Below, in pieces: positions 272 to 15,384 of a stretch of 64,000 bases of DNA (the stretch's first letter is position 1; every line of letters begins with the position of its first letter). The notes under the pieces are model-generated. The model saw nothing but the letters and a program-made list of their open reading frames with translations. It was not told the DNA's origin and ran no database searches. The DNA lies in NCBI RefSeq assembly GCF_007970665.1, contig NZ_CP042430.1, forward strand, positions 2,418,001-2,482,000. Reading direction: 5' to 3'. The translations under genes were made by a program, and so were the position numbers. Source of the stretch: Baekduia soli. GTDB lineage: Bacteria > Actinomycetota > Thermoleophilia > Solirubrobacterales > Solirubrobacteraceae.

Positions 272-289
272 ATTGGCGCATGCGCTAGT
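272..289. promoter_or_regulatory. 18-bp regulatory dyad, site 1
   Basis: ATTGGCG-CATG-CGCTAGT matches the recurring dyad ACTGGCG-N4-CGCCAGT with one change per arm. It ends 22 bases before TCTGAT (312-317), a weak -10 candidate that itself lies 8 bases before the GTG start at 326. The same spacing recurs at other sites in this island. Confidence 0.55.
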
Positions 290-325
290 GGCGCAGGGCA
301 CCGTCGCCCGGTCTGATGGAGGCCG

Positions 326-739
326 GTGTTCAACGCATTGAGATCCGATGAGCTGCTCGTGGGGGTGGGGCGCATGCTGCGCATGGCCGCCGACCTCCAG
401 GGCCCGCCGGAGGACTACGAGCGCAGCGTCCTGCTCTCGGCCTTCAGCGTGACGCGCCTGCTGGCCTCCGAGCAGCGGGCCGCGCCGGCCCTGCTGGCCT
501 CCACGCAGGCCGGGCTGGACGACGTGCTGGCCGCCGACCTGCGGCCCGCCGTCAGCGAGGCGCGCCGGCGCATCGCCGCCGCCGCCGACGGCGTCGAGGT
601 CGGCGACGTGCTGGTCGACCTGCTCGCCGAGCTGCCGGCGCAGGACCCCACGCGCACCGCCGTGCACGGCGTGCTGCGGCGCATGGTCGACGAGGAGGTG
701 GCGGCGCTCGCGCGCTCCCCCGAGGAGGACGAGGCGTGA
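326..739 (+). CDS. small helical protein, probable partner of the adjacent kinase (DUF6285/LvaB-like)
   Basis: A 137-residue all-alpha acidic protein with no signal peptide or membrane segment. The GTG start lies 36 bases after regulatory site 1. It overlaps the next gene by four bases (GTGA), so the two are translationally coupled. Small proteins of this kind (DUF6285, or LvaB of the Pseudomonas levulinate pathway) are encoded beside APH-type acyl-CoA kinases, where LvaB forms a complex with kinase LvaA. Assignment rests on size, predicted helical character and position rather than a diagnostic motif. If correct, it is a structural or activating subunit of the 736-1776 kinase. Confidence 0.6.
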   Translation: MFNALRSDELLVGVGRMLRMAADLQGPPEDYERSVLLSAFSVTRLLASEQRAAPALLASTQAGLDDVLAADLRPAVSEARRRIAAAADGVEVGDVLVDLLAELPAQDPTRTAVHGVLRRMVDEEVAALARSPEEDEA

Positions 740-1776
740 GCGCCGAGGACCACGAGGGCATCGACGCCGCCAAGGCGGAGGCGATGCTGGCGACGATGCG
801 CTCGGTCGGCTCGGCCGACGACGCGTCGCGCGTCACGTACCTCGAGCAGCTCGAGGGCGGCTGGTCGCGCCACTCCTATGCCGCGCGCGTGCGGCACGGC
901 GACGGCACCGAGCGCGCCTACATCCTGCGCGCGCGGCCGCGCGCGTCGACGCTGGACACCGACCTGGGCCAGGAGTTCCGGACCTTCGAGCTGCTCGTCG
1001 ACGAGCCGCTGCCCTCGCCCGCCGTCCACGGCTACGAGCCCTCCGAGGACACCCCGTTCGACGGGCCCTACTTCGTGATGGACCGCCTCGTGGGCCACGC
1101 CGTCAACGTCTGGCGGGGCCGCGACCGCCGCCAGCTGCACGAGGACTGGGAGGGCGGCCGCGGCATCGCGACCGACTTCGTCGCGTACCTGGCCGCGATC
1201 CACCGCATCGATCCCGGGCGCGCCGCGCAGGCGAGCATCGTGCGCGACTTCACCGCGACGGTCGACCACTGGCAGGGCGTCTACCAGGAGATGCGCCTGG
1301 TCCGCGATCCCGTGATCGAGGAGGCCTACGCCTGGGTGCGCAGCCGCGAGCCCGACCCCGTGCCGGCCTGCCTGGTCCACGGCGACTACCGCATCGGCAA
1401 CTGCCTCATCGAGGACGGCCGCGTGTCGGGCATCCTGGACTGGGAGCTCTCCTACGTCGGCGACCCGCGCTTCGATCTCGGGTACATGGCGCTGGACTAC
1501 CACGCCGGCAAGTTCACGACGCCGGGATCCGACCTGCTGGCCGCGGTGGCCGACCGGACGTGGTTCTACGAGCGCTACGGCGAGCTGACGGGGCAGCCCG
1601 TCGACCTCGAGGCCGTGCGCACGTTCAGCGCCCTCGGCGCGCTCATGCTCTTCGCGATCATGACGACGGGGATCCGCGTGTACTCGCGCCGTGAGACGAC
1701 CGACATCCGCATGGCCTGGGCGCGCTTCGTGCTGCCCGGCCTGCGCCAGGATCTCGCCGGGATCATGGCCTGGTGA
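736..1776 (+). CDS. APH-type phosphotransferase family protein (putative acyl-CoA kinase)
   Basis: 346 residues. Contains the kinase catalytic signature HGDYRIGNCLIEDGRVSG (Asp base, Asn metal ligand) followed by ILDWE with the Mg-binding Asp, all near residues 216-240. This matches aminoglycoside-phosphotransferase-like enzymes, including the kinase part of ACAD10/ACAD11 and LvaA, which phosphorylate 4-hydroxyacyl-CoA before an acyl-CoA dehydrogenase-like enzyme eliminates phosphate. The GTG start overlaps the stop of the upstream partner gene. Neighbouring acyl-CoA synthetase and acyl-CoA dehydrogenase genes support a CoA-ester substrate over antibiotic resistance. The specific substrate is inferred only. 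Confidence 0.8.
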   Translation: MSAEDHEGIDAAKAEAMLATMRSVGSADDASRVTYLEQLEGGWSRHSYAARVRHGDGTERAYILRARPRASTLDTDLGQEFRTFELLVDEPLPSPAVHGYEPSEDTPFDGPYFVMDRLVGHAVNVWRGRDRRQLHEDWEGGRGIATDFVAYLAAIHRIDPGRAAQASIVRDFTATVDHWQGVYQEMRLVRDPVIEEAYAWVRSREPDPVPACLVHGDYRIGNCLIEDGRVSGILDWELSYVGDPRFDLGYMALDYHAGKFTTPGSDLLAAVADRTWFYERYGELTGQPVDLEAVRTFSALGALMLFAIMTTGIRVYSRRETTDIRMAWARFVLPGLRQDLAGIMAW

Positions 1777-1785
1777 CCCGTGACC

Positions 1786-1803
1786 ACTGGCGCTAGCGCC
1801 AGT
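1786..1803. promoter_or_regulatory. 18-bp regulatory dyad, site 2 (perfect palindrome)
   Basis: ACTGGCGCTAGCGCCAGT is a perfect 18-bp palindrome, the best copy of the recurring dyad. It ends 22 bases before CATTCT (1826-1831), a plausible -10 box. The acyl-CoA synthetase ATG is at 1863, preceded by the ribosome-binding stretch GGGGAGGG. A five-codon ATG frame (1849-1866) ends in an ATGA overlap with that start and may be chance. Confidence 0.65.
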
Positions 1804-1862
1804 ACCACGGCGCGGAGCGGGGTGTCATTCTCGCGCCGCGTACGGAAGATGGGGAGGGTCGC

Positions 1863-3482
1863 ATGACGGATCTCGATGCTGCGAAGGTCAAGTTGGATCT
1901 CACGCGGGCATCGCGCTGGAACTCCCTCACCCTGTCGCAGCTGCTCGAGCGCGACGGCCTGGACCTCGACAAGCCCGCGATCGTCTTCGAGGACGCGTCG
2001 CGCACCTACGGCGAGCTGCGCGTGGCCGCGCGCCGCGTCGCCAACGCGCTCATCGGCCTGGGCATCGACGAGTTCGACCGGGTCGCCGTGCTCAGCGCCA
2101 ACCGCCTGGAGTTCATGGAGGTCGAGGCGGGCATCGCGGGCGCCCGGGCCATCATGGTGCCATTGAACTGGCGGCTGCGCGACGGCGAGCTGGCCAACCT
2201 CCTGCGCCGGTCCCAGGCCCGCGCGATCTTCGTCGAGGAGCGGTTCCTGGCCACGATCCTCGCGCTGCGCCGCGCCGGCGAGGTCCCCAACCTGCGCACG
2301 GTCATCGCCTTCGACGGCGCACCCGGCGACCTCAACTACGAGGAGGTGATCGGCTCGGCGTCGGCCGAGCGCCCGACGCGCACCGGGCGGCTGGACGACC
2401 CGCACGAGATCATCTTCACCTCGGGCACGACGGGCCAGCCCAAGGGCGTGGTGTGGACCAACGGCACCGTCATCTTCAACGCGCTGCAACAGGCCACCGA
2501 CTTCATGCTGGGCCCGCAGCACAGCAGCTACGCGCTGATCGACCTGTATTACATCGGCGCCCGCCACGACTTCACCTGGGCGATCCTGCAGGTGGGCGGG
2601 ACCGTGCACATCAAGCCCTCCAGCGGCTTCGACGCCGGCGAGGTGGTGCGCTACGTCGCCCGGCACCGGATCACCCACATCCTCTGGGTGCCGACGATGT
2701 TGTACGAGATCCTGCGGCTGCCCGACCTGGCCGACCACGACCTCGGTGCGCTGCAGATGATCATGTGCGGCGGCCAGCCCGTCTCGGTCGCCACGACCGA
2801 GAGCTCCCAGGAGGCGTGGCCCCACACCGACTTCATCCAGGTCTACGGCCTCACGGAGGGCGGCGGGTCGGTCACCTACGTCCGGCCTGACCACGCGCGC
2901 TCCAAGCCCGGCTCGGCCGGCCAGCCCTCGCTCAACGTCGAGATCCGCCTCGTGGACCCAGAGGGCCTGGACGTGCCGACCGGCATCGACGGCGAGGTCC
3001 TGGTCCGCGCGCCCACGGTCACCGCGGGCTACTGGGACGACCCGGAGGCCACCGACCGCCTCATCGTCGACGACTGGCTGCATACGGGCGACATGGGTCA
3101 CGTCGACGAGGACGGCCACCTCTACATCTCGGGCCGCAAGGGCGACATGATCATCAGCGGCGGGATGAACGTGTTCCCGCACGAGATCGAGGACGTGCTG
3201 TGCGAGCACCCGTCGGTGGCCGACGCCGCGGTCATCGGCCTGCCCCACGAGAAGTGGGGCGAGACGGTGTGCGCGGTCGTCGAGGCGGCGCCCGGGGCCA
3301 CCGTCGACGAGCAGGACCTCATCGCGTTCTGCACGCAGCGGCTGGCGAGCTACAAGAAGCCGACGTCCGTGCAGGTCGTCGAGGAGATCCCGCGCACGTC
3401 GGCCGGCAAGGCCAAGAAGTTCATCCTGCGCGAGCGGTTCGCGCGGCCCGAGACCACCGCGCTGCCCTCCCCCTCCGGGTGA
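1863..3482 (+). CDS. AMP-dependent acyl-CoA synthetase/ligase
   Basis: 539 residues of the ANL adenylating superfamily, which activates a carboxylate to acyl-AMP and then acyl-CoA. Seen directly: P-loop-like IIFTSGTTGQPKGVVW near residue 180, YGLTEGG near 327, the hinge region DWLHTGDMGHVDEDGHLYISGR near 405, and a C-terminal PRTSAGKAKKF with the catalytic Lys near residue 520. Length is normal for medium- or long-chain ligases. It lies directly upstream of a HyuA/HyuB carboxylase pair. In acetone and acetophenone carboxylation the beta-keto acid product is next activated to CoA, so a beta-keto acid is a reasonable but unproven substrate. LvaE of the 4-hydroxy acid pathway is another analogue. 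Confidence 0.9.
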   Translation: MTDLDAAKVKLDLTRASRWNSLTLSQLLERDGLDLDKPAIVFEDASRTYGELRVAARRVANALIGLGIDEFDRVAVLSANRLEFMEVEAGIAGARAIMVPLNWRLRDGELANLLRRSQARAIFVEERFLATILALRRAGEVPNLRTVIAFDGAPGDLNYEEVIGSASAERPTRTGRLDDPHEIIFTSGTTGQPKGVVWTNGTVIFNALQQATDFMLGPQHSSYALIDLYYIGARHDFTWAILQVGGTVHIKPSSGFDAGEVVRYVARHRITHILWVPTMLYEILRLPDLADHDLGALQMIMCGGQPVSVATTESSQEAWPHTDFIQVYGLTEGGGSVTYVRPDHARSKPGSAGQPSLNVEIRLVDPEGLDVPTGIDGEVLVRAPTVTAGYWDDPEATDRLIVDDWLHTGDMGHVDEDGHLYISGRKGDMIISGGMNVFPHEIEDVLCEHPSVADAAVIGLPHEKWGETVCAVVEAAPGATVDEQDLIAFCTQRLASYKKPTSVQVVEEIPRTSAGKAKKFILRERFARPETTALPSPSG

Positions 3483-3499
3483 CTGGCGGATAGGACAGT
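3482..3499. promoter_or_regulatory. 18-bp regulatory dyad, site 3
   Basis: ACTGGCG-GATA-GGACAGT keeps the perfect left arm and the outer ACAGT of the right arm. It begins on the last base of the synthetase stop codon. It ends exactly 22 bases before CAGAGT (3522-3527), the candidate -10 of the hyuA-hyuB unit. Confidence 0.6.
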
Positions 3500-3501
3500 T
3501 G

Positions 3502-3516
3502 CCCCGTCCGACGGGG
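3502..3516. repeat. 7-bp inverted repeat CCCCGTC-C-GACGGGG
   Basis: A perfect 7+1+7 dyad between site 3 and the candidate -10 box. The one-base centre is too tight for a good RNA hairpin. It may be a second operator in the spacer or a chance GC palindrome. Confidence 0.3.
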
Positions 3517-3563
3517 CTGGACAGAGTGGACGATGCGGCAAAGACCTTGTTTCGAGGAGACCC

Positions 3564-5666
3564 ATGACTGAGAGCGGCACCAACGGAAGCGGCGGGCAGG
3601 CCTTCATCGGCGTCGACGTCGGCGGCACCCACACCGACGTGTCGGTGATCTACGAGGGCCGCGTCGAGCGCGGCAAGGCCCTGACGACGTACGACGACTT
3701 CAGCCGCGGGGTGCTCGAGGCCGTCGGGGTCGCGGCCAAGACCTACGGGCTGTCGATGGAGGACCTGCTGGCGCGGACCCAGCTCTTCATCAACGGCACC
3801 ACCGTCGTCACCAACGCGATCACGCAGCTGCGCGGCTCGCGCGTCGGCGTTCTCATCACGAACGGCTTCGGCGACGCCTTCCGCCTCGCCGGCGGCCCGC
3901 GGACGACGGAGATCGACGACCACCTCCAGCTCAACGTCCCCGACCTCGTCGACCGCCAGGCCATCGCGGACATCGACGAGCGCATCGACTGGTCGGGCGC
4001 CGTGCTCGTCCCGCTCGACGTCGAGCAGGTCAAGGCGCAGGCCAAGCACCTCGTCGAGGAGGTCGGCGTCGACGCGCTGTCGATCTGCTTCCTGTGGAGC
4101 CACGCCAACACGGCCCACGAGGTCGCGGCCCGCGACGCGATCAAGGAGATCTACCCCGACCTCTTCGTGACGATGTCGCACGGGGTGTTCCCCGTGGAGG
4201 GCGAGACGCGCCGCTGGACGACCGCGGTGCTCAACTCGTTCGTGCAGGCCAGCGCCGACGTCTACCTGACCTCGCTCAACGAGAAGCTGCGCACGGCCGG
4301 CCTGACCGGCGGCCTCGCCTTCTTCCAGGGCCTGGGCGGCGGCATCAGCCTCGAGAAGGCGCGCGAGTACCCGCTCGGCCTGCTGGGCTCCGGCCCGGCC
4401 GCGGGGGCCATCGGCTCCAACGAGCTGGCCAAGCGCATGGGCAAGAAGCGCGTCCTGCTCGGCGACATGGGCGGCACGAGCTTCGACACCGGGATCATCG
4501 TCGACAACGAGATCCACATCGACAAGAACCTCCAGCTCGGCCCGTTCATGACGGGCGTCAACATCGTCGACGTGGTCTCGGTCGGCGCCGGCGGCGGCTC
4601 CATCGGCTGGGTCAGCGAGCGCGGCGTGCCGCAGGTCGGCCCGCACAGCGCCGGCTCGACCCCGGGCCCGGCCGCGCTGGACCGCGGGGGCGAGCAGCCC
4701 ACGGTCACCGACGCCATGGTCACGCTCGGGTTCATCGATCCCGACAACTACCTCGGCGGCCGCGTCAAGCTCAAGCCCGAGAAGTCCCGTGAGGTGCTCG
4801 ACCGCGTCTTCGGCGAGCGCTTCGGCTGGTCGACGGAGGAGTCGGCGGCGGCCATGCACGACCTCGTTGTGGTCAACATGGCCAACGCGGTGCGCGAGGT
4901 CTCGGTCGGCAAGGGCCACGACCCGCGCGAGTTCCTGTTCCTGGCCTACGGCGGCACGCTGCCGCTGTTCGCGTCGCAGATCGCCGAGCGCCTGAACATC
5001 GGGACGATCGTCATCCCGCGCAACAGCTCGGTCTTCTGCGCGCTGGGCCTGCTGAGCTCGGACTACGTCATGCGCTTCGACCAGGGCGTGGGCTGGGACC
5101 TGTCCAAGCCCGAGGGCGTGGACCGGGTCAACGCCATCGCCGAGCGCATGGTCGCCGAGGCGATCGCGCAGATGGAGTCCGAGGGCTTCCCGCGCGAGCA
5201 GATCGAGGTCCAGCGCACGGCCGACGTCCGGTTCCACGGCCAGGCCTACGAGCTGACGCTGCCGATGCCCGCCCGCACGCTGAACAGCGACGACGCCGGT
5301 CAGGTGTTCGACGACTTCCTGGCCACCTACGAGCGGACCTACGGCGAGGGCACGGCGTGGAAGGGCGTGCCGGCCTCGCTCATCAACTACAGCGTCACGG
5401 TCATCGGGCGCCAGGACCGGCCCGAGATGGGCGTCGCGGTCAGCGGCAACGGCACGCATGCCGTCCCGGTGCGCGAGACGCGGCAGGTCTTCCTGCCCAC
5501 CGAGCGCCACCTCGACGAGGTGCCGATCATCGACGACGCCGCCTTCGAGGTCGGCAGCAAGGTCGAGGGGCCTGCGATCATCGACGCCGTCGACACGACG
5601 GTCTACCTGCCGCCGGGTACCCGGGCGGAGCGAGACGCATACATGAACTACGTCCTGACGCGCTGA
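3564..5666 (+). CDS. hyuA: hydantoinase/oxoprolinase family subunit A (ketone carboxylase beta-like)
   Basis: 700 residues. N-terminal GVDVGGTHTDVSVI near residues 12-26 is the first phosphate-binding loop of the actin-like ATPase fold. LLGDMGGTSFDTGII near residue 310 and GAGGGSIGWV near 345 are conserved in HyuA and in acetone carboxylase AcxA. The family either opens hydantoin or oxoproline rings, or, in acetone/acetophenone carboxylases, uses ATP to phosphorylate the substrate and bicarbonate before carboxylation. The carboxylase reading is favoured because the next gene carries a gamma-subunit-like domain. ATG at 3564 follows GAGGAGA. Only 10 bases separate it from the partner gene. Confidence 0.85.
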   Translation: MTESGTNGSGGQAFIGVDVGGTHTDVSVIYEGRVERGKALTTYDDFSRGVLEAVGVAAKTYGLSMEDLLARTQLFINGTTVVTNAITQLRGSRVGVLITNGFGDAFRLAGGPRTTEIDDHLQLNVPDLVDRQAIADIDERIDWSGAVLVPLDVEQVKAQAKHLVEEVGVDALSICFLWSHANTAHEVAARDAIKEIYPDLFVTMSHGVFPVEGETRRWTTAVLNSFVQASADVYLTSLNEKLRTAGLTGGLAFFQGLGGGISLEKAREYPLGLLGSGPAAGAIGSNELAKRMGKKRVLLGDMGGTSFDTGIIVDNEIHIDKNLQLGPFMTGVNIVDVVSVGAGGGSIGWVSERGVPQVGPHSAGSTPGPAALDRGGEQPTVTDAMVTLGFIDPDNYLGGRVKLKPEKSREVLDRVFGERFGWSTEESAAAMHDLVVVNMANAVREVSVGKGHDPREFLFLAYGGTLPLFASQIAERLNIGTIVIPRNSSVFCALGLLSSDYVMRFDQGVGWDLSKPEGVDRVNAIAERMVAEAIAQMESEGFPREQIEVQRTADVRFHGQAYELTLPMPARTLNSDDAGQVFDDFLATYERTYGEGTAWKGVPASLINYSVTVIGRQDRPEMGVAVSGNGTHAVPVRETRQVFLPTERHLDEVPIIDDAAFEVGSKVEGPAIIDAVDTTVYLPPGTRAERDAYMNYVLTR

Positions 5667-5676
5667 GGGAGCCATC

Positions 5677-7860
5677 ATGAGCACTGCCGACTACGACGTC
5701 ATCGCCGCCGAGGTCCACCGGAAGGCGCTGAAGAACCTGACCGACGAGATGGCGATCACCCTGGTGCGCACCTCGGGGTCGCCGATCGTCACGGAGTCCA
5801 AGGACTTCTCGACGTGCCTGATGGACACCAAGCCCGAGCACCTCGGGTTCAGCTCCTACGTGCTGTTCCACGTGGGCTCGTCGCTCATCGGGACCGAGGT
5901 GATCGCCGACCTGGTCAGGGGCGGCGTCGACCTCAAGCCGGGTGACGGCTGGGTGGTCAACGACCCGCACACCGGCGGTGCCATGCACCAGGGTGACGTG
6001 TCGATCATCATGCCGACCTTCTACAAGGGCGAGCACCTGGGCTGGTCCTTCGCCAACATGCACGTCCTGGACGTGGGCGGGGTGGGCATCTCGGGCTACG
6101 CCCCGGGGGCGCACGACGTGTGGCAGGAGGGCATGCGCTTCCCGCCGATCCGGATCATCCGCGACGGCGCGATCGACCCCGAGTGGGAGCACTACATCGC
6201 GGCCAACGTCCGCGCGCCGGGTGCCGTGCTCAACGACATCCGCTCCATGGTCGCGTCGAACAACACGGCGACGGTCAAGCTCACCCAGATCATCGACGAG
6301 TTCGGCCTCGAGGCCCATCGCCAGTACTGCGAGATCAACAAGGACCTCAGCGAGCAGGTGCTGCGCGAGCGGATCGCCAAGATCCCCGACGGCGTCTACG
6401 AGGCCGTCGACTGGAACGAGTTCGACGGCCACGACGGCCCCGACCGGCTGCTGGAGCTGCGCTGCCGCCTGGAGGTCGACGGGACCGACCTGCGGTTCTT
6501 CTACACCGGCGTCCCGCAGATCGACGCGTTCGTCAACTCGACGATGGGCCCGATGTTCGGTCAGGCGATGACCGGCCTGATGACGATCCTGGTCTACGGC
6601 GACCTGCCGGTCAACGGCGGCCTGTGGCGTCCCATCACCGTCGACATCGGCGAGCCCGGCACGATCGTCAACTCGGTGCCGCCGGCCCCGGTCAGCAACG
6701 CGCACTCCGAGGTCGGCATGCGCGCCTGCAAGCTGGCCAAGGACGTGCTCTGCCAGGCCATGGCGCTCAGCGACGATCCCATCCTGCGCAGCCGCATCTC
6801 CGGCCAGCACCAGGACGGCTTCCCGGGCAACGCGCTGTTCGGCAACAACCAGCACGGCGGCGTGTCGGTCATCTTCTACCCCGACAACGCCATCGGCTCC
6901 GGCGGCGGCGCGCAGACGATCAACGACGGCCAGGACGCCTACGGGCTGACCTGCACCACCGGTGGCGGCATCCCCGACGTCGAGAACCACGAGGGCGCCG
7001 ACCCGGTGCTCTTCCTGTGGCGGCGCCTGGTGGCCAACTCCGGCGGCCCCGGCCAGTACCGCGGCGGCCAGTCGCTCGACCAGGCCTACGCGATCCACTA
7101 CTCCGACGTGATGGCGGGGCCGTGCTTCAACGCGTGCGCCCAGGTGCCGCCGCACGGCGTCGGCGGCGGCTACCCCGGCTGCGCGGGGACGTTCTTCCCC
7201 GTGCGCGCCTCCAACGTCGAGGAGCTCATCGCGGCCGGCAGCATGCCGACCCGTCAGGCGCTTGACGGCCGCACCGAGGTCGTGCGCTCCAAGCTGACGC
7301 ACATCGTCCTCGAGCGCGGTGACGTGTTCGTCGCCACCGCGGGCGGCGGCGCCGGCCTGGGCGACCCGCTGCTGCGGGCACCCGAGCTCGTGGCCAAGGA
7401 CATCGTCTCGGGCTACGTCACCGCCGAGCACGCCCACACGATCTACGGCGTGGTGCTCAACGACGCCGGCGAGGCCGATGCCGAGAAGACCGCGGCGCGC
7501 CGTGCCGAGATCCGCCGCGAGCGGATCGGCGCCGACCCGGCCAAGGAGGCCGCGACGCCCCCGAGCCCGGGCATCTCGCTCGCGCGGGTCGACGGGGGCT
7601 GGACGTGCACGTCCTGCCAGGAGCGGCTGGCCGACGCCGACGGCAACTGGCGCGAGGGCGCGGTCCTGTCCGAGCACCCGATCGCCGAGCGCTACGACGA
7701 GCTCGGCATGATCGTCCGCGACCGCAAGGAGAGCCCGCGCGTGCACATGCGCGAGTACTTCTGCCCGGGGTGCGCGGCGAGCCTCGGGGTCGACGTCGCC
7801 ACCGAGGATCTCGAGACGCTCCCGGCGGCCTCAGCGCTGAAGGCGGCCGCCACCGCCTGA
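5677..7860 (+). CDS. hyuB: hydantoinase B/oxoprolinase family subunit fused to an acetone-carboxylase-gamma-like zinc domain
   Basis: 727 residues. Residues 1 to about 590 form a HyuB/AcxB-type subunit: near the start comes TLVRTSGSPIVTESKDFS, then WVVNDPHTGGAMHQGDV near residue 90, then GGGGAQTINDG near 410. After a linker, residues 640-720 carry WTCTSCQERL and then HMREYFCPGCAASLGVDV. This resembles the zinc-binding gamma subunit of acetone carboxylase (Acetone_carb_G), normally a separate protein. The fusion is the main reason to call the pair a ketone carboxylase rather than a hydantoinase. ATG at 5677 is preceded by GAGGGAG. Expected partner is the HyuA product, giving an alpha/beta complex with built-in gamma. 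Confidence 0.85.
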   Translation: MSTADYDVIAAEVHRKALKNLTDEMAITLVRTSGSPIVTESKDFSTCLMDTKPEHLGFSSYVLFHVGSSLIGTEVIADLVRGGVDLKPGDGWVVNDPHTGGAMHQGDVSIIMPTFYKGEHLGWSFANMHVLDVGGVGISGYAPGAHDVWQEGMRFPPIRIIRDGAIDPEWEHYIAANVRAPGAVLNDIRSMVASNNTATVKLTQIIDEFGLEAHRQYCEINKDLSEQVLRERIAKIPDGVYEAVDWNEFDGHDGPDRLLELRCRLEVDGTDLRFFYTGVPQIDAFVNSTMGPMFGQAMTGLMTILVYGDLPVNGGLWRPITVDIGEPGTIVNSVPPAPVSNAHSEVGMRACKLAKDVLCQAMALSDDPILRSRISGQHQDGFPGNALFGNNQHGGVSVIFYPDNAIGSGGGAQTINDGQDAYGLTCTTGGGIPDVENHEGADPVLFLWRRLVANSGGPGQYRGGQSLDQAYAIHYSDVMAGPCFNACAQVPPHGVGGGYPGCAGTFFPVRASNVEELIAAGSMPTRQALDGRTEVVRSKLTHIVLERGDVFVATAGGGAGLGDPLLRAPELVAKDIVSGYVTAEHAHTIYGVVLNDAGEADAEKTAARRAEIRRERIGADPAKEAATPPSPGISLARVDGGWTCTSCQERLADADGNWREGAVLSEHPIAERYDELGMIVRDRKESPRVHMREYFCPGCAASLGVDVATEDLETLPAASALKAAATA

Positions 7861-7894
7861 GGGCGGAGATGAAGGTCTGAAGAAGCCGACCGAA

Positions 7895-7925
7895 CGGGCG
7901 GGCGCGCCACTGGCGTGCCCGCCCG
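7895..7925. terminator. strong GC hairpin after hyuB, overlapping dyad site 4
   Basis: The arms CGGGCGGGCGCGCC and GGCGTGCCCGCCCG form a 14-bp stem with one G-T pair and a three-base ACT loop. No T tract follows. It is placed to end the synthetase/hyuA/hyuB unit. Because it contains dyad site 4, it could instead be mainly a DNA-level operator. Confidence 0.5.
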
Positions 7926-7926
7926 G
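7909..7926. promoter_or_regulatory. 18-bp regulatory dyad, site 4 (degenerate right arm), before the two-component genes
   Basis: ACTGGCG-TGCC-CGCCCGG has a perfect left arm and a right arm changed in its outer bases. It ends only 7 bases before TATGGT (7934-7939), the probable -10 of the response-regulator operon. That is much closer than the 21-22 bases at most other sites and would suit negative autoregulation. Confidence 0.45.
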
Positions 7927-7980
7927 TGCGCTGTATGGTCCCTCTCCGTTGTCGACCGCGCGGTAGGAGGAGAGAGTGCC

Positions 7981-8649
7981 ATGCGGATCATGATCGTGGA
8001 CGATCACGAGATCGTGCGCGAAGGGGTCAGGGCCGCATTGTCGTGCGACCCGCGAATCGAAGTGGTGGCCGAGGCGGGCTCGGGCAAGGAGGCGCTGCGC
8101 CGCGTCCGCCAGACGCTGCCGGACATCGCCCTCGTCGACCTGCGCCTGCCCGACATGCGCGGCGAGGATCTCACGCGTGAGCTGGTCCGGGACTTCCCCG
8201 GCACTTCGGTGATCATCCTCACGACGTACCTGAGCGAGGAGACCGTCCGCGGTGCCCTCGAGGCCGGGGCCGTGGCCTACGTCACCAAGGCGGCCGGCCT
8301 GCCCGAGCTGACCGCGGCCATCGAGCGCGTGATGGACGGCGAGCCGGTGCCCGACGCCGCCGCCGGCCTGCAGATCGTGCGCCAGCTCCACGCGCTGGTC
8401 ACGAGCCGTATGACCGGGGCGACGCCCACGCCGCAGCAGGAGCGCGTGCTCGAGCTCGCGGCCCAGGGCTTCACGAACCAGGAGATCGGCAGCCGCCTGT
8501 TCATCTCCGAGTCCACGGTCCGGTTCCACGTACAGAAGCTCAAGTCGAAGTTCGAGGCGCGCACGAAGACCGAGCTGATCGCCAAGGCGATCCGCACCGG
8601 CTTCATCGCCCCGGCCAGCGAGGCCGGGATGGCATCGCACGAGGCATGA
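7981..8649 (+). CDS. NarL/FixJ-type two-component response regulator
   Basis: 222 residues. The receiver domain starts MRIMIVDDHEIVREG (acidic pair D7-D8), has the phosphoacceptor at D53 in IALVDLRLPDM, and a conserved Lys in AYVTKAAG near 100. The C-terminal LuxR-type helix-turn-helix spans QGFTNQEIGSRLFISESTV near 160-180. ATG at 7981 is chosen because it begins the receiver motif and follows TAGGAGGAGAG. Four-base ATGA overlaps link it to the GAF protein and the histidine kinase downstream, so the cognate sensor is clear. A copy of the island's 18-bp dyad precedes it. NarL-type regulators bind such inverted heptamers as dimers, so this protein is the leading candidate to read the dyad (inference). 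Confidence 0.93.
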   Translation: MRIMIVDDHEIVREGVRAALSCDPRIEVVAEAGSGKEALRRVRQTLPDIALVDLRLPDMRGEDLTRELVRDFPGTSVIILTTYLSEETVRGALEAGAVAYVTKAAGLPELTAAIERVMDGEPVPDAAAGLQIVRQLHALVTSRMTGATPTPQQERVLELAAQGFTNQEIGSRLFISESTVRFHVQKLKSKFEARTKTELIAKAIRTGFIAPASEAGMASHEA

Positions 8650-9140
8650 TCCCCGCCGCCGGGCCGCGGCCCACGCCCGCCTTCGGCGGCCTGTCGCGGG
8701 CGGCGCGCCGTGCGCTGGGCAGCGAGGCGGTCGTCATCGTCTACGAGCCCGACGGCGGCCACGGCGTCGTCGTCGAGCAGGAGGGCCTGGTGCCCGGGAC
8801 CGTGCGCGCCTTCGGCCGCGCTCTGGCCAACGGCGACGACGCGTTCCTCGCGCGCGAGTTCTCGGGCGTGCTGACCGCCGAGGTCAACCTGGAGGGCGAG
8901 CGGCTCGGCGCGATCCATGCGCTGCGCCACTCGCTCGGCGACTTCGAGCACCCCGAGCTCATCGGGATCTTCGCGGCCCAAGCCGCCATCGCGCTCGGGA
9001 TGGCCCAGCGCCCGCCGGCCCACCACGACGGGTCCGAGATCCTGTCCGAGCTGGACCACCTCGTGCTGTCGGTCCACAACCTCGAGGACCTCAGCCGCGC
9101 GGTGACCGACGCGCTGGGCCCGGTGTTCGGGGGGCCATGA
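8646..9140 (+). CDS. GAF-domain-like sensory protein
   Basis: 164 residues. The central segment VVIVYEPDGGHGVVVEQEG to LGAIHALRH to IFAAQAAIALGMAQ has the layout of a GAF domain, including the terminal helix typical of phytochrome/GAF proteins. The last 35 residues form a helix that may couple to a partner. It has no kinase or DNA-binding region. It overlaps the response regulator by ATGA and the histidine kinase by ATGA, so it is probably an accessory sensor of that kinase or a split-off N-terminal GAF module of it. Ligand unknown. Confidence 0.7.
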   Translation: MIPAAGPRPTPAFGGLSRAARRALGSEAVVIVYEPDGGHGVVVEQEGLVPGTVRAFGRALANGDDAFLAREFSGVLTAEVNLEGERLGAIHALRHSLGDFEHPELIGIFAAQAAIALGMAQRPPAHHDGSEILSELDHLVLSVHNLEDLSRAVTDALGPVFGGP

Positions 9141-10591
9141 CGGCGGTCATGGTCGCCGACCCGCAGCGCAACATCCTGCAGATGTCGCCCGGGGCGTTCG
9201 GCGCACCCGGCGAGGTCGCCGCCTCCCACCAGGTCAACCTCTTCGACCCCAACAGCAACTCCGCGCGGGTCTACAACACGGGCCAGCCGTACATCAGCAA
9301 CGACTCGGCGCGCGACCCGGGCATCCGCAAGAGCTACGTCGACATCTTCGGCATCGAGCGGCTGATGTCGGTGCCGCTGCACCGCATCGGGCTGCTGCAC
9401 ATCGCCAACAAGCCCGAGCCGTTCAACCTCGACGATCTCGAGCGCGCGATGGCCCTGGCGCCGCGCATCGCCAACATCGTCGAGCTCGCCACGACGCTGC
9501 TGCGCCTGCGCCGCCAGCAGCGCCTGGAGGGCATCCTCGCCGACGTCGCCGTCTCCGTCGCCTCCGGCGCCGGGGTGCAGAGCTTCCTCGTGCCCGCGCT
9601 GGAGGAGCTGTGCGAGGCCACCGACGCCAACCTGCTGGCCATCGTCCCCGACGAGGCCCCGGCGATCATGGCCCGGCGCGGCATCCTGCAGGACGGCGAC
9701 GAGGCCACCGTGCTCGAGGAGGCCGGCGGCAACCCGGGCGTGCGCGCCTACGTCGTCGGCCCGCGCAAGGCCGGCGATCCGGGCCAGGCGGCGTTCTACG
9801 TGCCCGTGCGCCTCGGGCACCAGCGCCTGGGCACGCTGGCCGCCTTCCGCTGCCGCGGCGAGCCGTTCGCCCAGGCCGAGCGGCGCTCGCTCATGCGCCT
9901 GGCCAACCTCGCCGCGCTGGCCCGCGCCACCGAGCGCTACCAGGAGCAGCGGTCCGAGCTGGCCCGCCTGCAGGAGCGCCAGCGCATCGCCGACGACCTG
10001 CACGACGATGTGGCCCAGATCCTCTTCGCCGCGCAGATCAGCCTCGACGCCATCCTCCAGCGCGACGAGCTCGACGACAGCGCCGCGGAGGCCATCGCAC
10101 GTGCCCGCGGCCTGCTCATCCGCGGCGACACCGCGATCCGCACGGTCATCCACCGCCTGTCGACCCCGCCCGCCGCCGACATCTCGACGCGGCTGTCGTC
10201 GGTGGTCTCCTCGGTGGAGGACGAGTTCGGGATGGTCGTCTCGATGCAGATCGCCCAGGACGCGCCGATGCTCGCCCGCCACCTGCCGCGGCCCAAGAGC
10301 GACGCGCTGGTCAAGGTCGCGCGCGAGTCGCTGGTCAACGCGGCCAAGCACGCCGGCCCGTGCGACGTCGTGCTGACGCTCGAGGTGCCGACCCCCGACC
10401 GGCTCGTGCTCACCGTCGCCGACGACGGATGCGGCCGGGTCGACGACGGCGGCGCGCCGCACCATGGCCTGGCGTCCCTGCGGCGCATCGTCAGCGAGCA
10501 GGGCGGGACGCTGCGCGTCGTGCACGGCCCGCACGGCGGCACCCGCGTCACCGCCGGCGTGCCGCTGGACTCGCAGCGCCTGAGCGCCTGA
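9137..10591 (+). CDS. GAF-domain sensor histidine kinase (HisKA_3 type)
   Basis: 484 residues, no membrane segments, so a cytosolic sensor. Two GAF-like regions (about 20-130 and 140-265) precede the dimerisation helix RQRIADDLHDDVAQILFAAQ with phospho-acceptor His289. The ATPase lobe has KVARESLVNAAKHAG (N box), VADDGCGR (G1) and HHGLASLRRI (G2). This is the DesK/NarX-like family that pairs with NarL-type regulators, as encoded two genes upstream. A soluble GAF sensor fits detection of an intracellular metabolite such as a CoA ester, but the ligand is not shown. The ATG start overlaps the GAF gene stop. Confidence 0.92.
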   Translation: MTAVMVADPQRNILQMSPGAFGAPGEVAASHQVNLFDPNSNSARVYNTGQPYISNDSARDPGIRKSYVDIFGIERLMSVPLHRIGLLHIANKPEPFNLDDLERAMALAPRIANIVELATTLLRLRRQQRLEGILADVAVSVASGAGVQSFLVPALEELCEATDANLLAIVPDEAPAIMARRGILQDGDEATVLEEAGGNPGVRAYVVGPRKAGDPGQAAFYVPVRLGHQRLGTLAAFRCRGEPFAQAERRSLMRLANLAALARATERYQEQRSELARLQERQRIADDLHDDVAQILFAAQISLDAILQRDELDDSAAEAIARARGLLIRGDTAIRTVIHRLSTPPAADISTRLSSVVSSVEDEFGMVVSMQIAQDAPMLARHLPRPKSDALVKVARESLVNAAKHAGPCDVVLTLEVPTPDRLVLTVADDGCGRVDDGGAPHHGLASLRRIVSEQGGTLRVVHGPHGGTRVTAGVPLDSQRLSA

Positions 10592-10620
10592 TCGGCCCCG
10601 CGCAGCGCTGCCGCACGCCG

Positions 10621-10638
10621 ACTGGCGTAGCCGACAGT
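10621..10638. promoter_or_regulatory. 18-bp regulatory dyad, site 5
   Basis: ACTGGCG-TAGC-CGACAGT, one base off in the right arm. It ends 21 bases before TACCGT (10660-10665), which sits 6 bases before the ATG at 10672. The transcript is therefore probably leaderless and the dyad centred near -43. Confidence 0.65.
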
Positions 10639-10671
10639 GGCGCCCGCGGGCCGCACGGCTACCGTGGGCCG

Positions 10672-11856
10672 ATGATCAACCCGTCCGCCGCCCTGCCGGT
10701 GCTGCCGCTGGTCGAGTCCGACGAGCACCGCCTGCTGCGCGAGTCGGTGCGCGAGATCGCCGGGGGATTCGGCCACGAGTACTTCGCGCGCGTGCGCCGC
10801 GAGGGCCGGCCGCCCAGCGAGCTGTGGGAGGCGCTGGCCGGCCACGGCTTCCTGGGGGTCAACATCCCCGAGGAATACGACGGCGGCGGCCAGGGCCTGC
10901 TCGAGCTCGCGCTGGTGGAGGAGGAGGTCAGCGCGGCCGGCTGCCCGCTGCTGCCGCTCATGGTCTCGCCCGGCGTGGCCGGCACGATCCTGTCGCTGCA
11001 CGGCAGCGCCGAGCAGAAGGACCGCTGGCTGCGCCCGCTGGGCACCGGCAAGGGCCATTACGCGCTCGCCGTCACCGAGCCCGACGCCGGCTCCAACTCC
11101 CACAAGATCTCCACCCGCGCGCGGCGCGACGGCGACTCGTGGGTCCTGCGTGGCACGAAGACCTACATCTCCGGCGTCGAGGACAGCCAGGTCATGCTCG
11201 TCATGGCCCGCACCGGCGAGGCCGACGAGCGCGGCCGCGGCCGGCTGTCCATGTTCCTCGTCGACGTCGACGCTCCGGGGCTGGAGCGCCAGCCGATCGA
11301 GACGGTCAGCGAGGCGCCCGAGCAGCAGTGGACGCTGTTCTTCGACGACGTCGTCGTCGGCGAGGACCGCCTCGTGGGCGGCGAGGGCGCCGGGCTGCAG
11401 GCCGGGTTCGACGGGCTGAACCCCGAGCGCATCCTCGGCGCTGCCGTCTGCATCGGCGTGGGGCGCTACGCGCTGGACCGCGCGTCGGAGTACGCGAACA
11501 AGCGCGAGGTGTGGGGCCGGCCCATCGGCGCCCACCAGGGCGTGGCGCACCCGCTGGCCGACGCGAAGATCGCGCTGGAGGCCGCGCGCCTGATGACCTA
11601 CAAGGCGGCGGTCCTGCAGGACGCGGGCGCGCCGGCGGGGGAGGCCTCCAACATGGCCAAGCTGCTGGCCGCCGATGCCGGGGGGCGCTGCCTGGACCAG
11701 GCCATCCAGACCCACGGCGGCAACGGCCTGTCGGTCGAGTACGGGCTGGCCGACCTGTGGTTCATCGTGCGGCTGATGAAGATCGCGCCGGTCTCGCGCG
11801 AGATGGTGCTCAACTACGTCGCGCAGCACTCGCTGGGGCTGCCGCGCTCCTACTGA
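10672..11856 (+). CDS. acyl-CoA dehydrogenase family protein
   Basis: 394 residues. Seen: HGFLGVNIPEEYDGGGQG in the N-terminal helical domain, ALAVTEPDAGSNSHKI (flavin and substrate contacts near residue 127), RGTKTYISG near 163, and C-terminal QTHGGNGLSVEYGLADLW near 345. It binds FAD and dehydrogenates an acyl-CoA, passing electrons to ETF. In 4-hydroxy acid catabolism a member of this family (LvaC, ACAD10/11) instead removes phosphate from a 4-phosphoacyl-CoA. The regulated kinase at 736-1776 makes that role worth considering. It is too short for a typical methylsuccinyl-CoA dehydrogenase. The start is 6 bases after a -10 box. Confidence 0.92.
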   Translation: MINPSAALPVLPLVESDEHRLLRESVREIAGGFGHEYFARVRREGRPPSELWEALAGHGFLGVNIPEEYDGGGQGLLELALVEEEVSAAGCPLLPLMVSPGVAGTILSLHGSAEQKDRWLRPLGTGKGHYALAVTEPDAGSNSHKISTRARRDGDSWVLRGTKTYISGVEDSQVMLVMARTGEADERGRGRLSMFLVDVDAPGLERQPIETVSEAPEQQWTLFFDDVVVGEDRLVGGEGAGLQAGFDGLNPERILGAAVCIGVGRYALDRASEYANKREVWGRPIGAHQGVAHPLADAKIALEAARLMTYKAAVLQDAGAPAGEASNMAKLLAADAGGRCLDQAIQTHGGNGLSVEYGLADLWFIVRLMKIAPVSREMVLNYVAQHSLGLPRSY

Positions 11857-11883
11857 GCGCCGGCGGCGCCCACCGGCCGCTCA
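11854..11883. terminator. bidirectional hairpin terminator between convergent genes
   Basis: TGAGCGCCGG pairs with CCGG-c-CGCTCA across a nine-base loop, with one bulged C. The hairpin contains the stop codon of the acyl-CoA dehydrogenase gene and the stop codon of the facing luciferase-like gene. Confidence 0.5.
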
Positions 11884-12879
11884 GGCGGCGGCCGGCGTGA
11901 GGTAGCCGAGCTTGGTCAGGCGCTCGCCGAGGGCGTCGACGACGCTGGCCTGCTCGGCCTGGCCCAGGATGAACATGATCCCGGTCCAGCCGTCCTCGGC
12001 GATCCCGTCGATCGCCGCCTTCATGCGCGCCTCGCCGCCCCAGACGCACAGCGTGTCGATGAGGTAGTTCGACAGCCGTTCGCTGATGACGCCGGTGTTC
12101 TTGGGGCGCGAGTTGTCGGCGTGGAAGCCGTAGTCGTAGGCCTTGCGCATCTCCAGAACGTCGGCCTGGATCTCGTCGGGCACGTTGCGCTCGGACAGGT
12201 CGGCGCGCAGCCCGCGGTTGGCCATGGCCACGACCATCGCGCCGAGGTCCTCGCGCACCGCGTCGTGGTCTTCGCCCAGCGACACCGTCGGGGCGATCCA
12301 GTTCTCGCGGCCCTCGCCGACGCGGGCGGCCGCCAGCCGGCGCCGGCGGACCTCGGGGTCCATCGTGCCGCCGTACAGGATGCCGTCGCCGACCTCGCCG
12401 GCCAGCGCCGCGGCCTTCGGGCCGTCGGCGGAGACGAGGATGGGGCAGGTCGGGCGCTCGATGCCCGTGCGCGGGATCTGCGAGCCCTTGTAGGGCCCGC
12501 CCTCGCCGCGCCAGTAGCCATGGATGGCGTGCACGGCCTCGCCGAGCTCGGCGATCGTCGCGGGCTTCATGCCCAGGCCACGGGCGGCGCTGTTGCCGGT
12601 CGCCACCGTGCCGATGAACTTCCCGTCGGTGAACTCGGTCATCGTGGCGAACAGGTTGGCCACGATGACGGGGTGGCGGACGACGACGTGGCTGACCATC
12701 GGCCCCGTGATGACCGACGGGGCCGTGCGCGCCACCTCCAGCTGGTGCAGGAAGGACTCCTGATACACCGTCGGCGAGTCGGCCACGCTGATCCAGTCGA
12801 AGCCGTACCGCTCGCCGGACGCGGCGGCGATGCGGGTCTCCTCGAGGGACCGGGGCAGGATCATGAACCCGAACTTCAT
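11881..12879 (-). CDS. LLM-class F420-dependent oxidoreductase, paralogue 1
   Basis: 332 residues, a TIM-barrel luciferase-like protein. Notable segments are ADSPTVYQESFLHQ near residue 33, TGPMVSHVVVRHP near 58, TVATGNSAARGLGMKPATI near 90 and ADGPKAAALAGEVGDGI near 148. This pattern resembles the subgroup near methylene-tetrahydromethanopterin reductase, which uses F420. By eye it is about three-quarters identical over its full length to the protein at 14334-15332, with the same length and no gaps. Its ATG lies 6 bases after CATGCT, and dyad site 6 lies 22 bases further upstream. The substrate is unknown. The shared regulon suggests a step in the same catabolic route. Confidence 0.88.
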   Translation of the reverse strand: MKFGFMILPRSLEETRIAAASGERYGFDWISVADSPTVYQESFLHQLEVARTAPSVITGPMVSHVVVRHPVIVANLFATMTEFTDGKFIGTVATGNSAARGLGMKPATIAELGEAVHAIHGYWRGEGGPYKGSQIPRTGIERPTCPILVSADGPKAAALAGEVGDGILYGGTMDPEVRRRRLAAARVGEGRENWIAPTVSLGEDHDAVREDLGAMVVAMANRGLRADLSERNVPDEIQADVLEMRKAYDYGFHADNSRPKNTGVISERLSNYLIDTLCVWGGEARMKAAIDGIAEDGWTGIMFILGQAEQASVVDALGERLTKLGYLTPAAA

Positions 12880-12913
12880 CCGCGCAGCATGCCATCGGCC
12901 GCGCGGCCGGGGA

Positions 12914-12931
12914 ATGGGCGGTTATGCCAGT
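12914..12931. promoter_or_regulatory. 18-bp regulatory dyad, site 6
   Basis: On the minus strand it reads ACTGGCA-TAAC-CGCCCAT: one arm near-perfect, the other degenerate. It lies 22 bases upstream of CATGCT (12891-12886), the candidate -10 of the minus-strand luciferase-like gene. It overlaps the stop codon of the MFS gene. Confidence 0.5.
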
Positions 12932-14319: not shown

Positions 14320-14333
14320 GTCACGGGCGGGAC

Positions 14334-15332
14334 TCAGCCGGCGACCGGACTCAGGTGGCCGAGGCGCCGCAGGCGCTCGCCGAGCGCGTGCACGGCGGCG
14401 ACCTGGTCGGCCTGGCCCAGGACGAACATGATCCCGGTCCAGCCCTCCTGCGCGACGGCGTCGATGGCGGCCTGCATGCGCGCCTCGTCGCCCCAGACGC
14501 AGAGGTGGTCGATGAGGTGGCCCGCCAGCCGGTCGCTGACGACCGAGGTGTTCTTCGGCCGCGTCGTGTCGGCGTGGAAGCCATAGTCGTAGGCCTTGCG
14601 CATCGTCAGGACGTCGGCCTGGATCTCCTCGGGCACGTTGCGCTCGGACAGGTCGCCGCGCATGGCCCGGTTGGCCATGGCCACGACCATGGGGCCCAGG
14701 TCGTCGCGGACGGCCGCGTGGTCCTCGCCGAAGGAGACGGTCGGGGCGATCCACGCCTGGCGGTCGCCCTCGATGCGCGCGGCGGCCAGTCGCCGCCGGC
14801 GGACCTCCGGGTCCAGCGTGCCGCCGTAGAGCAGCCCGTCGCCGACCTCGCCGGCCAGCGCGGCGGCCTTCGGGCCGTCGGCCGAGACCAGCAGCGGGCA
14901 GCCGCGGCGCGCGATGCCCGTGGCGGGGATCCGCGAGCCCTTGAACGTGCCGCCCTCGCCGCGCCAGTAGCCCTGGATGGCGTGCACGGCCTCCCCGAGG
15001 TCGGCGATCGTCGCGGGCCTGAGGCCGGGGCCGCGGGCCGCGCTGTTGCCGGTGGCCAGCGTGCCGATCACGCGGCCGCCGGTGAGCTCGGCCAGGGTGG
15101 CCAGCGCGTTGCCGACGACGAGCGGATGGCGGACGACGACGTGGCTGACCATCGGGCCGGTCGTGACCGACGGCGCGGCGTGGGCGACCTCGGCCTGGTG
15201 CAGGTAGGACTCCTGGTAGACCGTCGGCGAGTCGCACACGCCGATCCAGTGCAGCCCGTGCCGCTCGCCGGCGATCGCCGCGGCGCGGGTCGACGCCAGG
15301 GAGCGGGGCTGCAGCATCACGCCGAACCTCAT
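14334..15332 (-). CDS. LLM-class F420-dependent oxidoreductase, paralogue 2
   Basis: 332 residues, the same length as the protein at 11881-12879 and gaplessly alignable with it (for example CDSPTVYQESYLHQ, TGPMVSHVVVRHP, ATGNSAARGPGLRPATI, ADGPKAAALAGEVGDG, DYGFHADTTRPKNTSVVS). Differences cluster at the N-terminus and in the loop after residue 125, where substrate contacts usually lie in this family. That suggests two related substrates or a two-subunit enzyme. First gene of a minus-strand unit with the MFS gene. GATGGT (15344-15339) sits 6 bases before its ATG, with dyad site 7 another 22 bases upstream. Confidence 0.88.
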   Translation of the reverse strand: MRFGVMLQPRSLASTRAAAIAGERHGLHWIGVCDSPTVYQESYLHQAEVAHAAPSVTTGPMVSHVVVRHPLVVGNALATLAELTGGRVIGTLATGNSAARGPGLRPATIADLGEAVHAIQGYWRGEGGTFKGSRIPATGIARRGCPLLVSADGPKAAALAGEVGDGLLYGGTLDPEVRRRRLAAARIEGDRQAWIAPTVSFGEDHAAVRDDLGPMVVAMANRAMRGDLSERNVPEEIQADVLTMRKAYDYGFHADTTRPKNTSVVSDRLAGHLIDHLCVWGDEARMQAAIDAVAQEGWTGIMFVLGQADQVAAVHALGERLRRLGHLSPVAG

Positions 15333-15366
15333 CGGGCCACCATCGCACCGCGGCGGGCCACGGAGG

Positions 15367-15384
15367 GTTGGCGGATCCGCCAGC
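15367..15384. promoter_or_regulatory. 18-bp regulatory dyad, site 7, between divergent genes
   Basis: GTTGGCG-GATC-CGCCAGC, with a perfect 14-bp core TGGCGGATCCGCCA. For the minus-strand luciferase-like gene it is 22 bases from GATGGT. For the plus-strand alcohol dehydrogenase it is 11 bases (one helical turn less) from TACGCT (15396-15401). One site could serve both promoters. Confidence 0.65.

What the first reader, a model, noticed from the sequence alone, without database searches (positions are those of the whole stretch)
272..15384. A new-looking regulon: seven copies of an 18-bp dyad ACTGGCG-N4-CGCCAGT, one per promoter, with fixed spacing to -10 boxes
Sites at 272, 1786, 3482, 7909, 10621, 12914 and 15367 share a 7-4-7 inverted repeat. 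They precede every transcription unit I can identify in the first 16 kb: kinase pair, acyl-CoA synthetase, hyuA-hyuB, two-component genes, acyl-CoA dehydrogenase, both luciferase-like genes and the alcohol dehydrogenase. At six promoters the gap from dyad to a -10-like hexamer is 21 or 22 bases by my count, which centres the dyad near -43, the class II activator position. I found no copy in the other intergenic regions of the window. The sites and spacings are seen directly. Their role as an activator box is inference.
Basis: partly seen in the sequence, partly recalled or inferred. Interest (0 to 1): 0.85.

Follow-up and report, generated by a model that had tools for sequence, protein, structure and literature searches.

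The report
DosR-like regulator box across catabolic genes
A Conexibacter-type soil actinobacterium carries one 18-base switch site in front of about twenty genes of a 68-kb degradation gene cluster, and comparison of 146 related genomes indicates that a two-component regulator encoded inside the cluster reads this site and turns the genes on.

Summary
The dyad is real, but six of the seven listed copies hold up. The copy at 7909 scores at background and is absent in relatives. The regulon also runs about 52 kb upstream of the window: 16 strong sites lie between window coordinates -52321 and 15367, all intergenic (12914 only overlaps a neighbour's stop codon). The refined site is ACTGGCGS-WW-SCGCCAGT. 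Over 82 promoter orientations in 12 genomes the only recurring downstream element is a -10 box (A at +24, T at +28 after the dyad: 57 of 82). That places the dyad at -52 to -35, centre -43.5. About half of the promoters have the start codon at the deduced +1, so they look leaderless.

The dyad tracks the NarL-type response regulator at 7981-8649. In 146 genomes, 12 of 14 with the regulator and 2 of 132 without it have strict dyads (p about 7e-14). In Agrococcus, outside the family, a 57%-identical regulator has five dyads nearby although almost no other gene is shared.

Best reading: a new regulon of a known kind, a DosR-like GAF-kinase two-component system activating class-II-type promoters of an acyl-CoA/steroid- or terpenoid-like catabolic cluster. 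Inducer, binding and transcription starts are untested.

The parts
272..289 (+). dyad ATTGGCGCATGCGCTAGT; promoter of the gene at 326-739 and the APH-type kinase at 736-1776
   Evidence: score 25.5. The GTG at 326 (GTG TTC AAC ...), 45.5 bases from the dyad centre, matches the start in relatives; T28 is present, A24 is not.
1786..1803 (+). perfect dyad ACTGGCGCTAGCGCCAGT; promoter of the acyl-CoA synthetase at 1863-3482
   Evidence: score 25.6; dyad at the orthologous promoter in G072, G073, G074, G089, G151
1826..1831 (+). -10-like hexamer CATTCT
   Evidence: A24/T28 register
3482..3499 (+). dyad ACTGGCGGATAGGACAGT; promoter of hyuA-hyuB and probably the downstream regulator-kinase genes
   Evidence: score 21.4; conserved in G004, G072, G089, G151
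3522..3527 (+). -10-like hexamer CAGAGT
10621..10638 (+). dyad ACTGGCGTAGCCGACAGT; promoter of the acyl-CoA dehydrogenase at 10672-11856, ATG 42.5 bases from the dyad centre
   Evidence: score 20.4; conserved in G070, G072, G073, G074, G151
10660..10665 (+). -10-like hexamer TACCGT, 6 bases before the ATG
   Evidence: register shifted by one base
12914..12931 (-). dyad ACTGGCATAACCGCCCAT (minus strand); promoter of the luciferase-like gene at 11881-12879, ATG 43.5 bases from the centre
   Evidence: score 19.3; overlaps the MFS stop codon; conserved at the luciferase-like promoter in G070, G072, G073, G074, G089
12886..12891 (-). -10-like hexamer CATGCT
15367..15384 (.). dyad GTTGGCGGATCCGCCAGC between the luciferase-like gene (14334-15332, minus) and the alcohol dehydrogenase (15432-16556, plus)
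   Evidence: score 16.7; the -10 register fits the minus direction (GATGGT), not the plus direction
15339..15344 (-). -10-like hexamer GATGGT
7981..8649 (+). NarL-type response regulator (receiver + GerE/LuxR HTH), proposed reader of the dyad
   Evidence: Pfam Response_reg and GerE; best solved relative DevR/DosR 3c3w, E 2.3e-36; co-occurrence with the dyad
8646..9140 (+). N-terminal piece of the sensor kinase, separate ORF in this genome
   Evidence: homologous to residues 16-171 of the single 672-aa kinase of G074
9137..10591 (+). sensor histidine kinase: GAF domains, HisKA_3, HATPase_c
   Evidence: Pfam; homologous to residues 167-655 of the G074 kinase
1863..3482 (+). acyl-CoA synthetase (AMP-binding)
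   Evidence: Pfam
3564..7860 (+). hyuA (3564-5666) and hyuB (5677-7860, with C-terminal Acetone_carb_G domain): hydantoinase/acetone-carboxylase superfamily
   Evidence: Pfam, NCBIfam below cut-offs
10672..11856 (+). acyl-CoA dehydrogenase
   Evidence: Pfam
11881..12879 (-). luciferase-like, probably F420-dependent oxidoreductase
   Evidence: Pfam, NCBIfam
14334..15332 (-). second luciferase-like gene
   Evidence: Pfam
15432..16556 (+). zinc-type alcohol dehydrogenase
   Evidence: Pfam

Best explanation
The dyad ACTGGCGS-WW-SCGCCAGT is the operator of the NarL/DosR-type response regulator at 7981-8649. A cytoplasmic GAF-domain histidine kinase (8646-10591) senses a substrate or intermediate and phosphorylates the regulator. 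The regulator dimer then binds the dyad at -52 to -35, where a -35 hexamer would lie, and recruits RNA polymerase to a TANNNT-type -10 box 22 bases downstream (class-II-like activation). About 16 sites switch on roughly twenty genes of a 68-kb acyl-CoA catabolic cluster (CoA ligases, HyuAB, IpdAB-like CoA-transferase, acyl-CoA dehydrogenases, luciferase-like oxidoreductases, transporter). Many of the mRNAs look leaderless, and one dyad often serves two divergent genes. Shown by computation: site, register, conservation, co-occurrence, recognition-helix signature. Inferred: binding, activation, inducer, transcription starts.
For: 16 strong sites in the cluster, all intergenic apart from one overlapping a stop codon. 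The matrix trained on this genome alone finds 51 intergenic and 7 genic sites in clusters of other genomes, where 9% of bases are intergenic (p about 9e-46; related promoters are not independent). A24/T28 in 57 of 82 promoter orientations and at no other offset in 8% or more of them. The register is the same whether the start codon is near 43 or 65-95 bases from the dyad centre, so it belongs to the promoter, not to the ORF. Strict dyads in 12 of 14 genomes with the regulator and in 2 of 132 without. The ipdA promoter dyad is kept in all nine genomes with a close regulator and is missing at the three more distant ipdA genes. Agrococcus baldri: 57% regulator, five sites above 17.5 in 20.6 kb where 0.14 are expected (p about 3e-7), other genes mostly unrelated. 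G119 and G116 have regulators only 49-51% identical yet dyads beside them; G119 shares only the regulator and kinase with this cluster. Recognition helix ESTVRFHxQKLK is shared by the clade and differs in outgroups.
Against: No binding or transcription data. Within the family the regulator and the cluster genes nearly always travel together, so that co-occurrence alone cannot separate regulator from cluster; the separation rests on Agrococcus, G119 and G116. The genome has two paralogous regulators with the same recognition helix, which might bind the same sites. Some orientations (272, 15367 plus, -52321 plus, -44577 minus, -8818 plus) lack the -10 register. The kinase reading frame is broken into two ORFs in this genome.
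Confidence: 0.8

Rival explanations
1. The dyad is the operator of a TetR-type repressor of the cluster (genes at -23559 to -23032 or -17507 to -16869), in the manner of KstR2.
For: Two TetR genes lie inside the cluster and are conserved with it. TetR proteins bind palindromes of this size (own knowledge), and KstR2 controls ipdAB in mycobacteria (PMC5380842).
Against: No strong dyad lies next to either TetR gene. Neither TetR has a homologue in the fetched G116, G119 and Agrococcus loci, where dyads sit beside the response regulator. The fixed -43.5 register without a recurring -35 element fits an activator.
Confidence: 0.07
2. The dyad is read by one of the two paralogous regulators (C1:536733, C1:4225910) or jointly by all three.
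For: Same recognition helix; several remote intergenic dyads exist in the genome, four or five with the -10 register.
Against: Within 20-kb stretches around the paralogues the best site scores 14.2. Genomes with dyad clusters carry the close orthologue, and only this genome of them has further copies at the cut-off used. Cross-binding remains possible.
Confidence: 0.1
3. The sites are not regulatory: chance palindromes in a 74% GC genome.
For: GC-rich coding DNA does yield such palindromes: the reversed-sequence control gave 7 above 15, and site 7909 was of this kind.
Against: Location between genes, single -10 register, conservation in divergent genomes and co-occurrence with the regulator.
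Confidence: 0.01

Closest known systems
DosR/DevR regulon (DosRST) of mycobacteria, and OsdR of Streptomyces
   Same: NarL-type regulator (DevR is the closest solved structure) paired with a GAF-domain HisKA_3 kinase; palindromic box of similar length with a central A/T pair (OsdR: AGGGCCGATCGGCCCT, PMC5069765); multi-operon regulon.
   Different: Half-site ACTGGCG instead of AGGGCC (OsdR) or the GGGAC type of DosR (own knowledge); targets are catabolic genes, not dormancy and universal-stress genes; inducer unknown.
KstR/KstR2 regulons of steroid catabolism
   Same: Target genes overlap in kind: ipdAB-like CoA-transferase (best solved matches 6con and 6co6), acyl-CoA dehydrogenases, CoA ligases.
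Two-component catabolic activators (StyRS, BpdST, TodST; from own knowledge)
   Same: Kinase-regulator pair controlling a degradation cluster.
   Different: As far as I know those act on one or a few promoters; here about 16 sites are spread over 68 kb. Sequences and sites were not compared here.

Membership tests
NarL/FixJ response regulators | receiver domain followed by GerE/LuxR HTH | tested here: met
   Pfam Response_reg 7.7e-26 and GerE 9.6e-15
NarL/FixJ response regulators | cognate HisKA_3 kinase encoded next to it | tested here: met
   HisKA_3 and HATPase_c in 9137-10591; a single 672-aa kinase in G074
DosR/DevR regulon | GGGAC/GTCCC-type box (own knowledge; OsdR box in PMC5069765) | tested here: not met
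   Half-site frequencies over 70 sites give ACTGGCG
DosR/DevR regulon | dormancy and universal-stress target genes | tested here: not met
   Dyad-linked genes examined are catabolic or transport genes
DosR/DevR regulon | haem-binding O2/NO-sensing GAF domain | not tested
   GAF domains found; ligand not examined
class II activator promoter | site overlaps the -35 position, centre near -42 | tested here: met
   deduced centre -43.5 from the -10 register and leaderless starts; start sites themselves not mapped
class II activator promoter | activation by contact with RNA polymerase | not testable with these tools
   needs in vitro transcription or genetics
KstR2-type TetR regulon | TetR repressor gene with its own operator copy | tested here: not met
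   no dyad at the TetR genes of the cluster

The most novel reading that the evidence does not exclude
An undescribed clade of DosR-like regulators, marked by the helix ESTVRFHxQKLK, has carried its own box and kinase between actinobacterial classes and placed whole degradation islands under one signal, with single dyads driving divergent, leaderless promoters in both directions.
Probability: 0.35. Interest if true: 0.65.

Novelty: new member of a known kind. Interest (0 to 1): 0.5.

Why it matters
It gives a precise, testable regulon (regulator, box, promoter register, about twenty targets) in Solirubrobacterales, soil bacteria for which the held library yielded no study of catabolic regulation, and a handle for finding the substrate of a large unassigned catabolic cluster. 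The fixed dyad-to-ATG distance is also a clean natural set for studying activator-driven leaderless promoters.

Tried and rejected
Site 7909 as a regulator promoter: rejected. Remote genomic dyads as full regulon members: most lack the -10 register, so only four or five are plausible (435070, 438444, 1343455, 1495719, perhaps 4230008). NCBIfam gave no equivalog above cut-off for the regulator, kinase or HyuAB. Literature searches found no prior description of this box or regulon in the held library; subscription papers were not searched. Control within the family using ipdA and the CoA synthetase: these co-occur with the regulator almost everywhere, so they could not separate the two.

Full report
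Observation. The seven 18-mers are at the stated coordinates. The window is G000:C1:2418001-2482000 of a 5.2-Mb genome; the window is 73.9% GC. Named relatives holding the regulator are Conexibacter and other Solirubrobacterales.

A matrix from ten sites (six in the window, four just upstream) was scanned over a contiguous 144 kb. Sixteen strong sites lie at window coordinates -52321, -48989, -44577, -32991, -31937, -31039, -8818, -5703, -3982, -2904, 272, 1786, 3482, 10621, 12914 and 15367. All are intergenic except 12914, which overlaps a stop codon by a few bases. Nothing else reaches 15; the next are 82337 (14.9, intergenic) and 23698 (14.6, in a gene). 160 kb elsewhere in the genome peaks at 14.2. 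The sites at 272-15367 and the four just upstream were used for training, so their own scores are partly circular; the six further sites from -52321 to -31039 and all sites in other genomes are not. Controls: none above 15 in 1.44 Mb of Markov sequence, seven in the reversed sequence, six of them inside genes. Site 7909 falls out.

Promoter register. For 82 promoter orientations in 12 genomes, sequence was lined up from the dyad end towards the nearest start codon. The only recurring element is A at +24 with T at +28 (57 of 82; 45 of 62 outside this genome; 12 of 20 inside, p about 6e-17), a TANNNT-type -10 box 22 bases after the dyad. The same register is seen for promoters whose start codon is 41-49 bases from the dyad centre and for those at 65-95, so it is a property of the promoter. 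With the -10 T at -7, +1 falls 35 bases after the dyad, the dyad spans -52 to -35 and its centre is -43.5. In the short class the start codon coincides with +1 or lies within a few bases of it, which predicts leaderless mRNA. The gene after site 272 starts at GTG 326 by comparison with relatives, which puts it in this class too. No -35 element recurs.

Which protein reads it. The regulator at 7981-8649 is a NarL-type response regulator, closest among solved structures to DevR/DosR. In 146 genomes of the family a strict dyad pattern occurs in 14, and a regulator with E below 1e-50 in 14; 12 are shared. All ten genomes with a regulator at 74% identity or more have two to seven dyads; the 132 without have two single hits in all (Fisher p about 7e-14). 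Where contigs allow, dyads lie within tens of kilobases of the regulator gene. At the ipdA promoter the dyad is kept in all nine genomes with a close regulator and absent at the ipdA genes of G154 and G018 and at a second ipdA copy in G004.

Because regulator and cluster usually travel together, cases in other gene contexts matter most. Agrococcus baldri, outside the family, has a 57%-identical regulator with five sites above 17.5 in 20.6 kb, against 0.14 expected from 1.07 Mb around other regulators; apart from the regulator and kinases its neighbours are only generic relatives. G119 shares just regulator and kinase with the window cluster, yet has dyads beside them, one with TAGGCT in the same register. 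The recognition helix ESTVRFHxQKLK is common to these proteins and differs in outgroups. Two paralogues in this genome share it, so cross-binding is possible.

What it controls. Dyad-linked genes include several CoA ligases, HyuA-HyuB pairs with an acetone-carboxylase-gamma-like domain, enoyl-CoA hydratase, acyl-CoA dehydrogenases, a MaoC-type dehydratase pair, zinc-type and luciferase-like oxidoreductases, a phosphotransferase and an ABC transporter. A CoA-transferase pair has IpdA as best solved match (the PDB names it only as a CoA-transferase alpha subunit, the IpdA identification of 6con/6co6 is own knowledge), the enzyme that opens the last steroid ring in mycobacteria (PMC5380842). An operon resembling acyclic-terpene utilisation (AtuA, biotin carboxylase, carboxyl transferase) lies within the cluster but has no dyad. 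A polycyclic terpenoid or steroid-like substrate is a guess only.

Mechanism and novelty. The best-supported model is phosphorylation-controlled activation from a class-II-like site. Activation rather than repression is inferred from geometry and from the lack of a -35 element. The kind of system is known (DosR-like two-component regulon); the box, the target set and the regulator clade were not found described in the papers that could be searched. It is rated a new member of a known kind, well supported by computation and untested at the bench.

Noticed in passing
window 8646-10591, G run near 9128-9133: The sensor kinase is one gene of about 650-680 codons in G070, G072, G073, G074 and G151 but two ORFs with an ATGA overlap here, apparently through one base missing in a GGGGGG run: sequencing error, inactivation or restart cannot be told apart.
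   Followed up: partly
G000:C1:536733-537377 and 4225910-4226542 (L117, L118): Two paralogues of the regulator (58% and 52% identity) with the same recognition helix; their own targets are unknown.
   Followed up: partly
L044:9944 and 6570, L067:6455, L075:3219: Remote intergenic dyads with the A24/T28 register; possible distant members of the regulon.
   Followed up: partly
L082:4786; L083:2915 and 3435: Near-identical dyads ACTGGCGCATYCGTCAGC followed by GAGTA-type words in stretches with few called genes; looks like a different, repeated element.
   Followed up: no
L049:3196-8611 (window about -16804 to -11389): AtuA, biotin carboxylase and carboxyl transferase genes, like an acyclic-terpene operon, with a divergent TetR gene and no dyad: a second control layer within the cluster.
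   Followed up: no
L142 (contig CAMCVN010000006.1): A record titled Bifidobacterium breve MAG carries this cluster with 84% regulator identity; the title looks like a mislabel.
   Followed up: no
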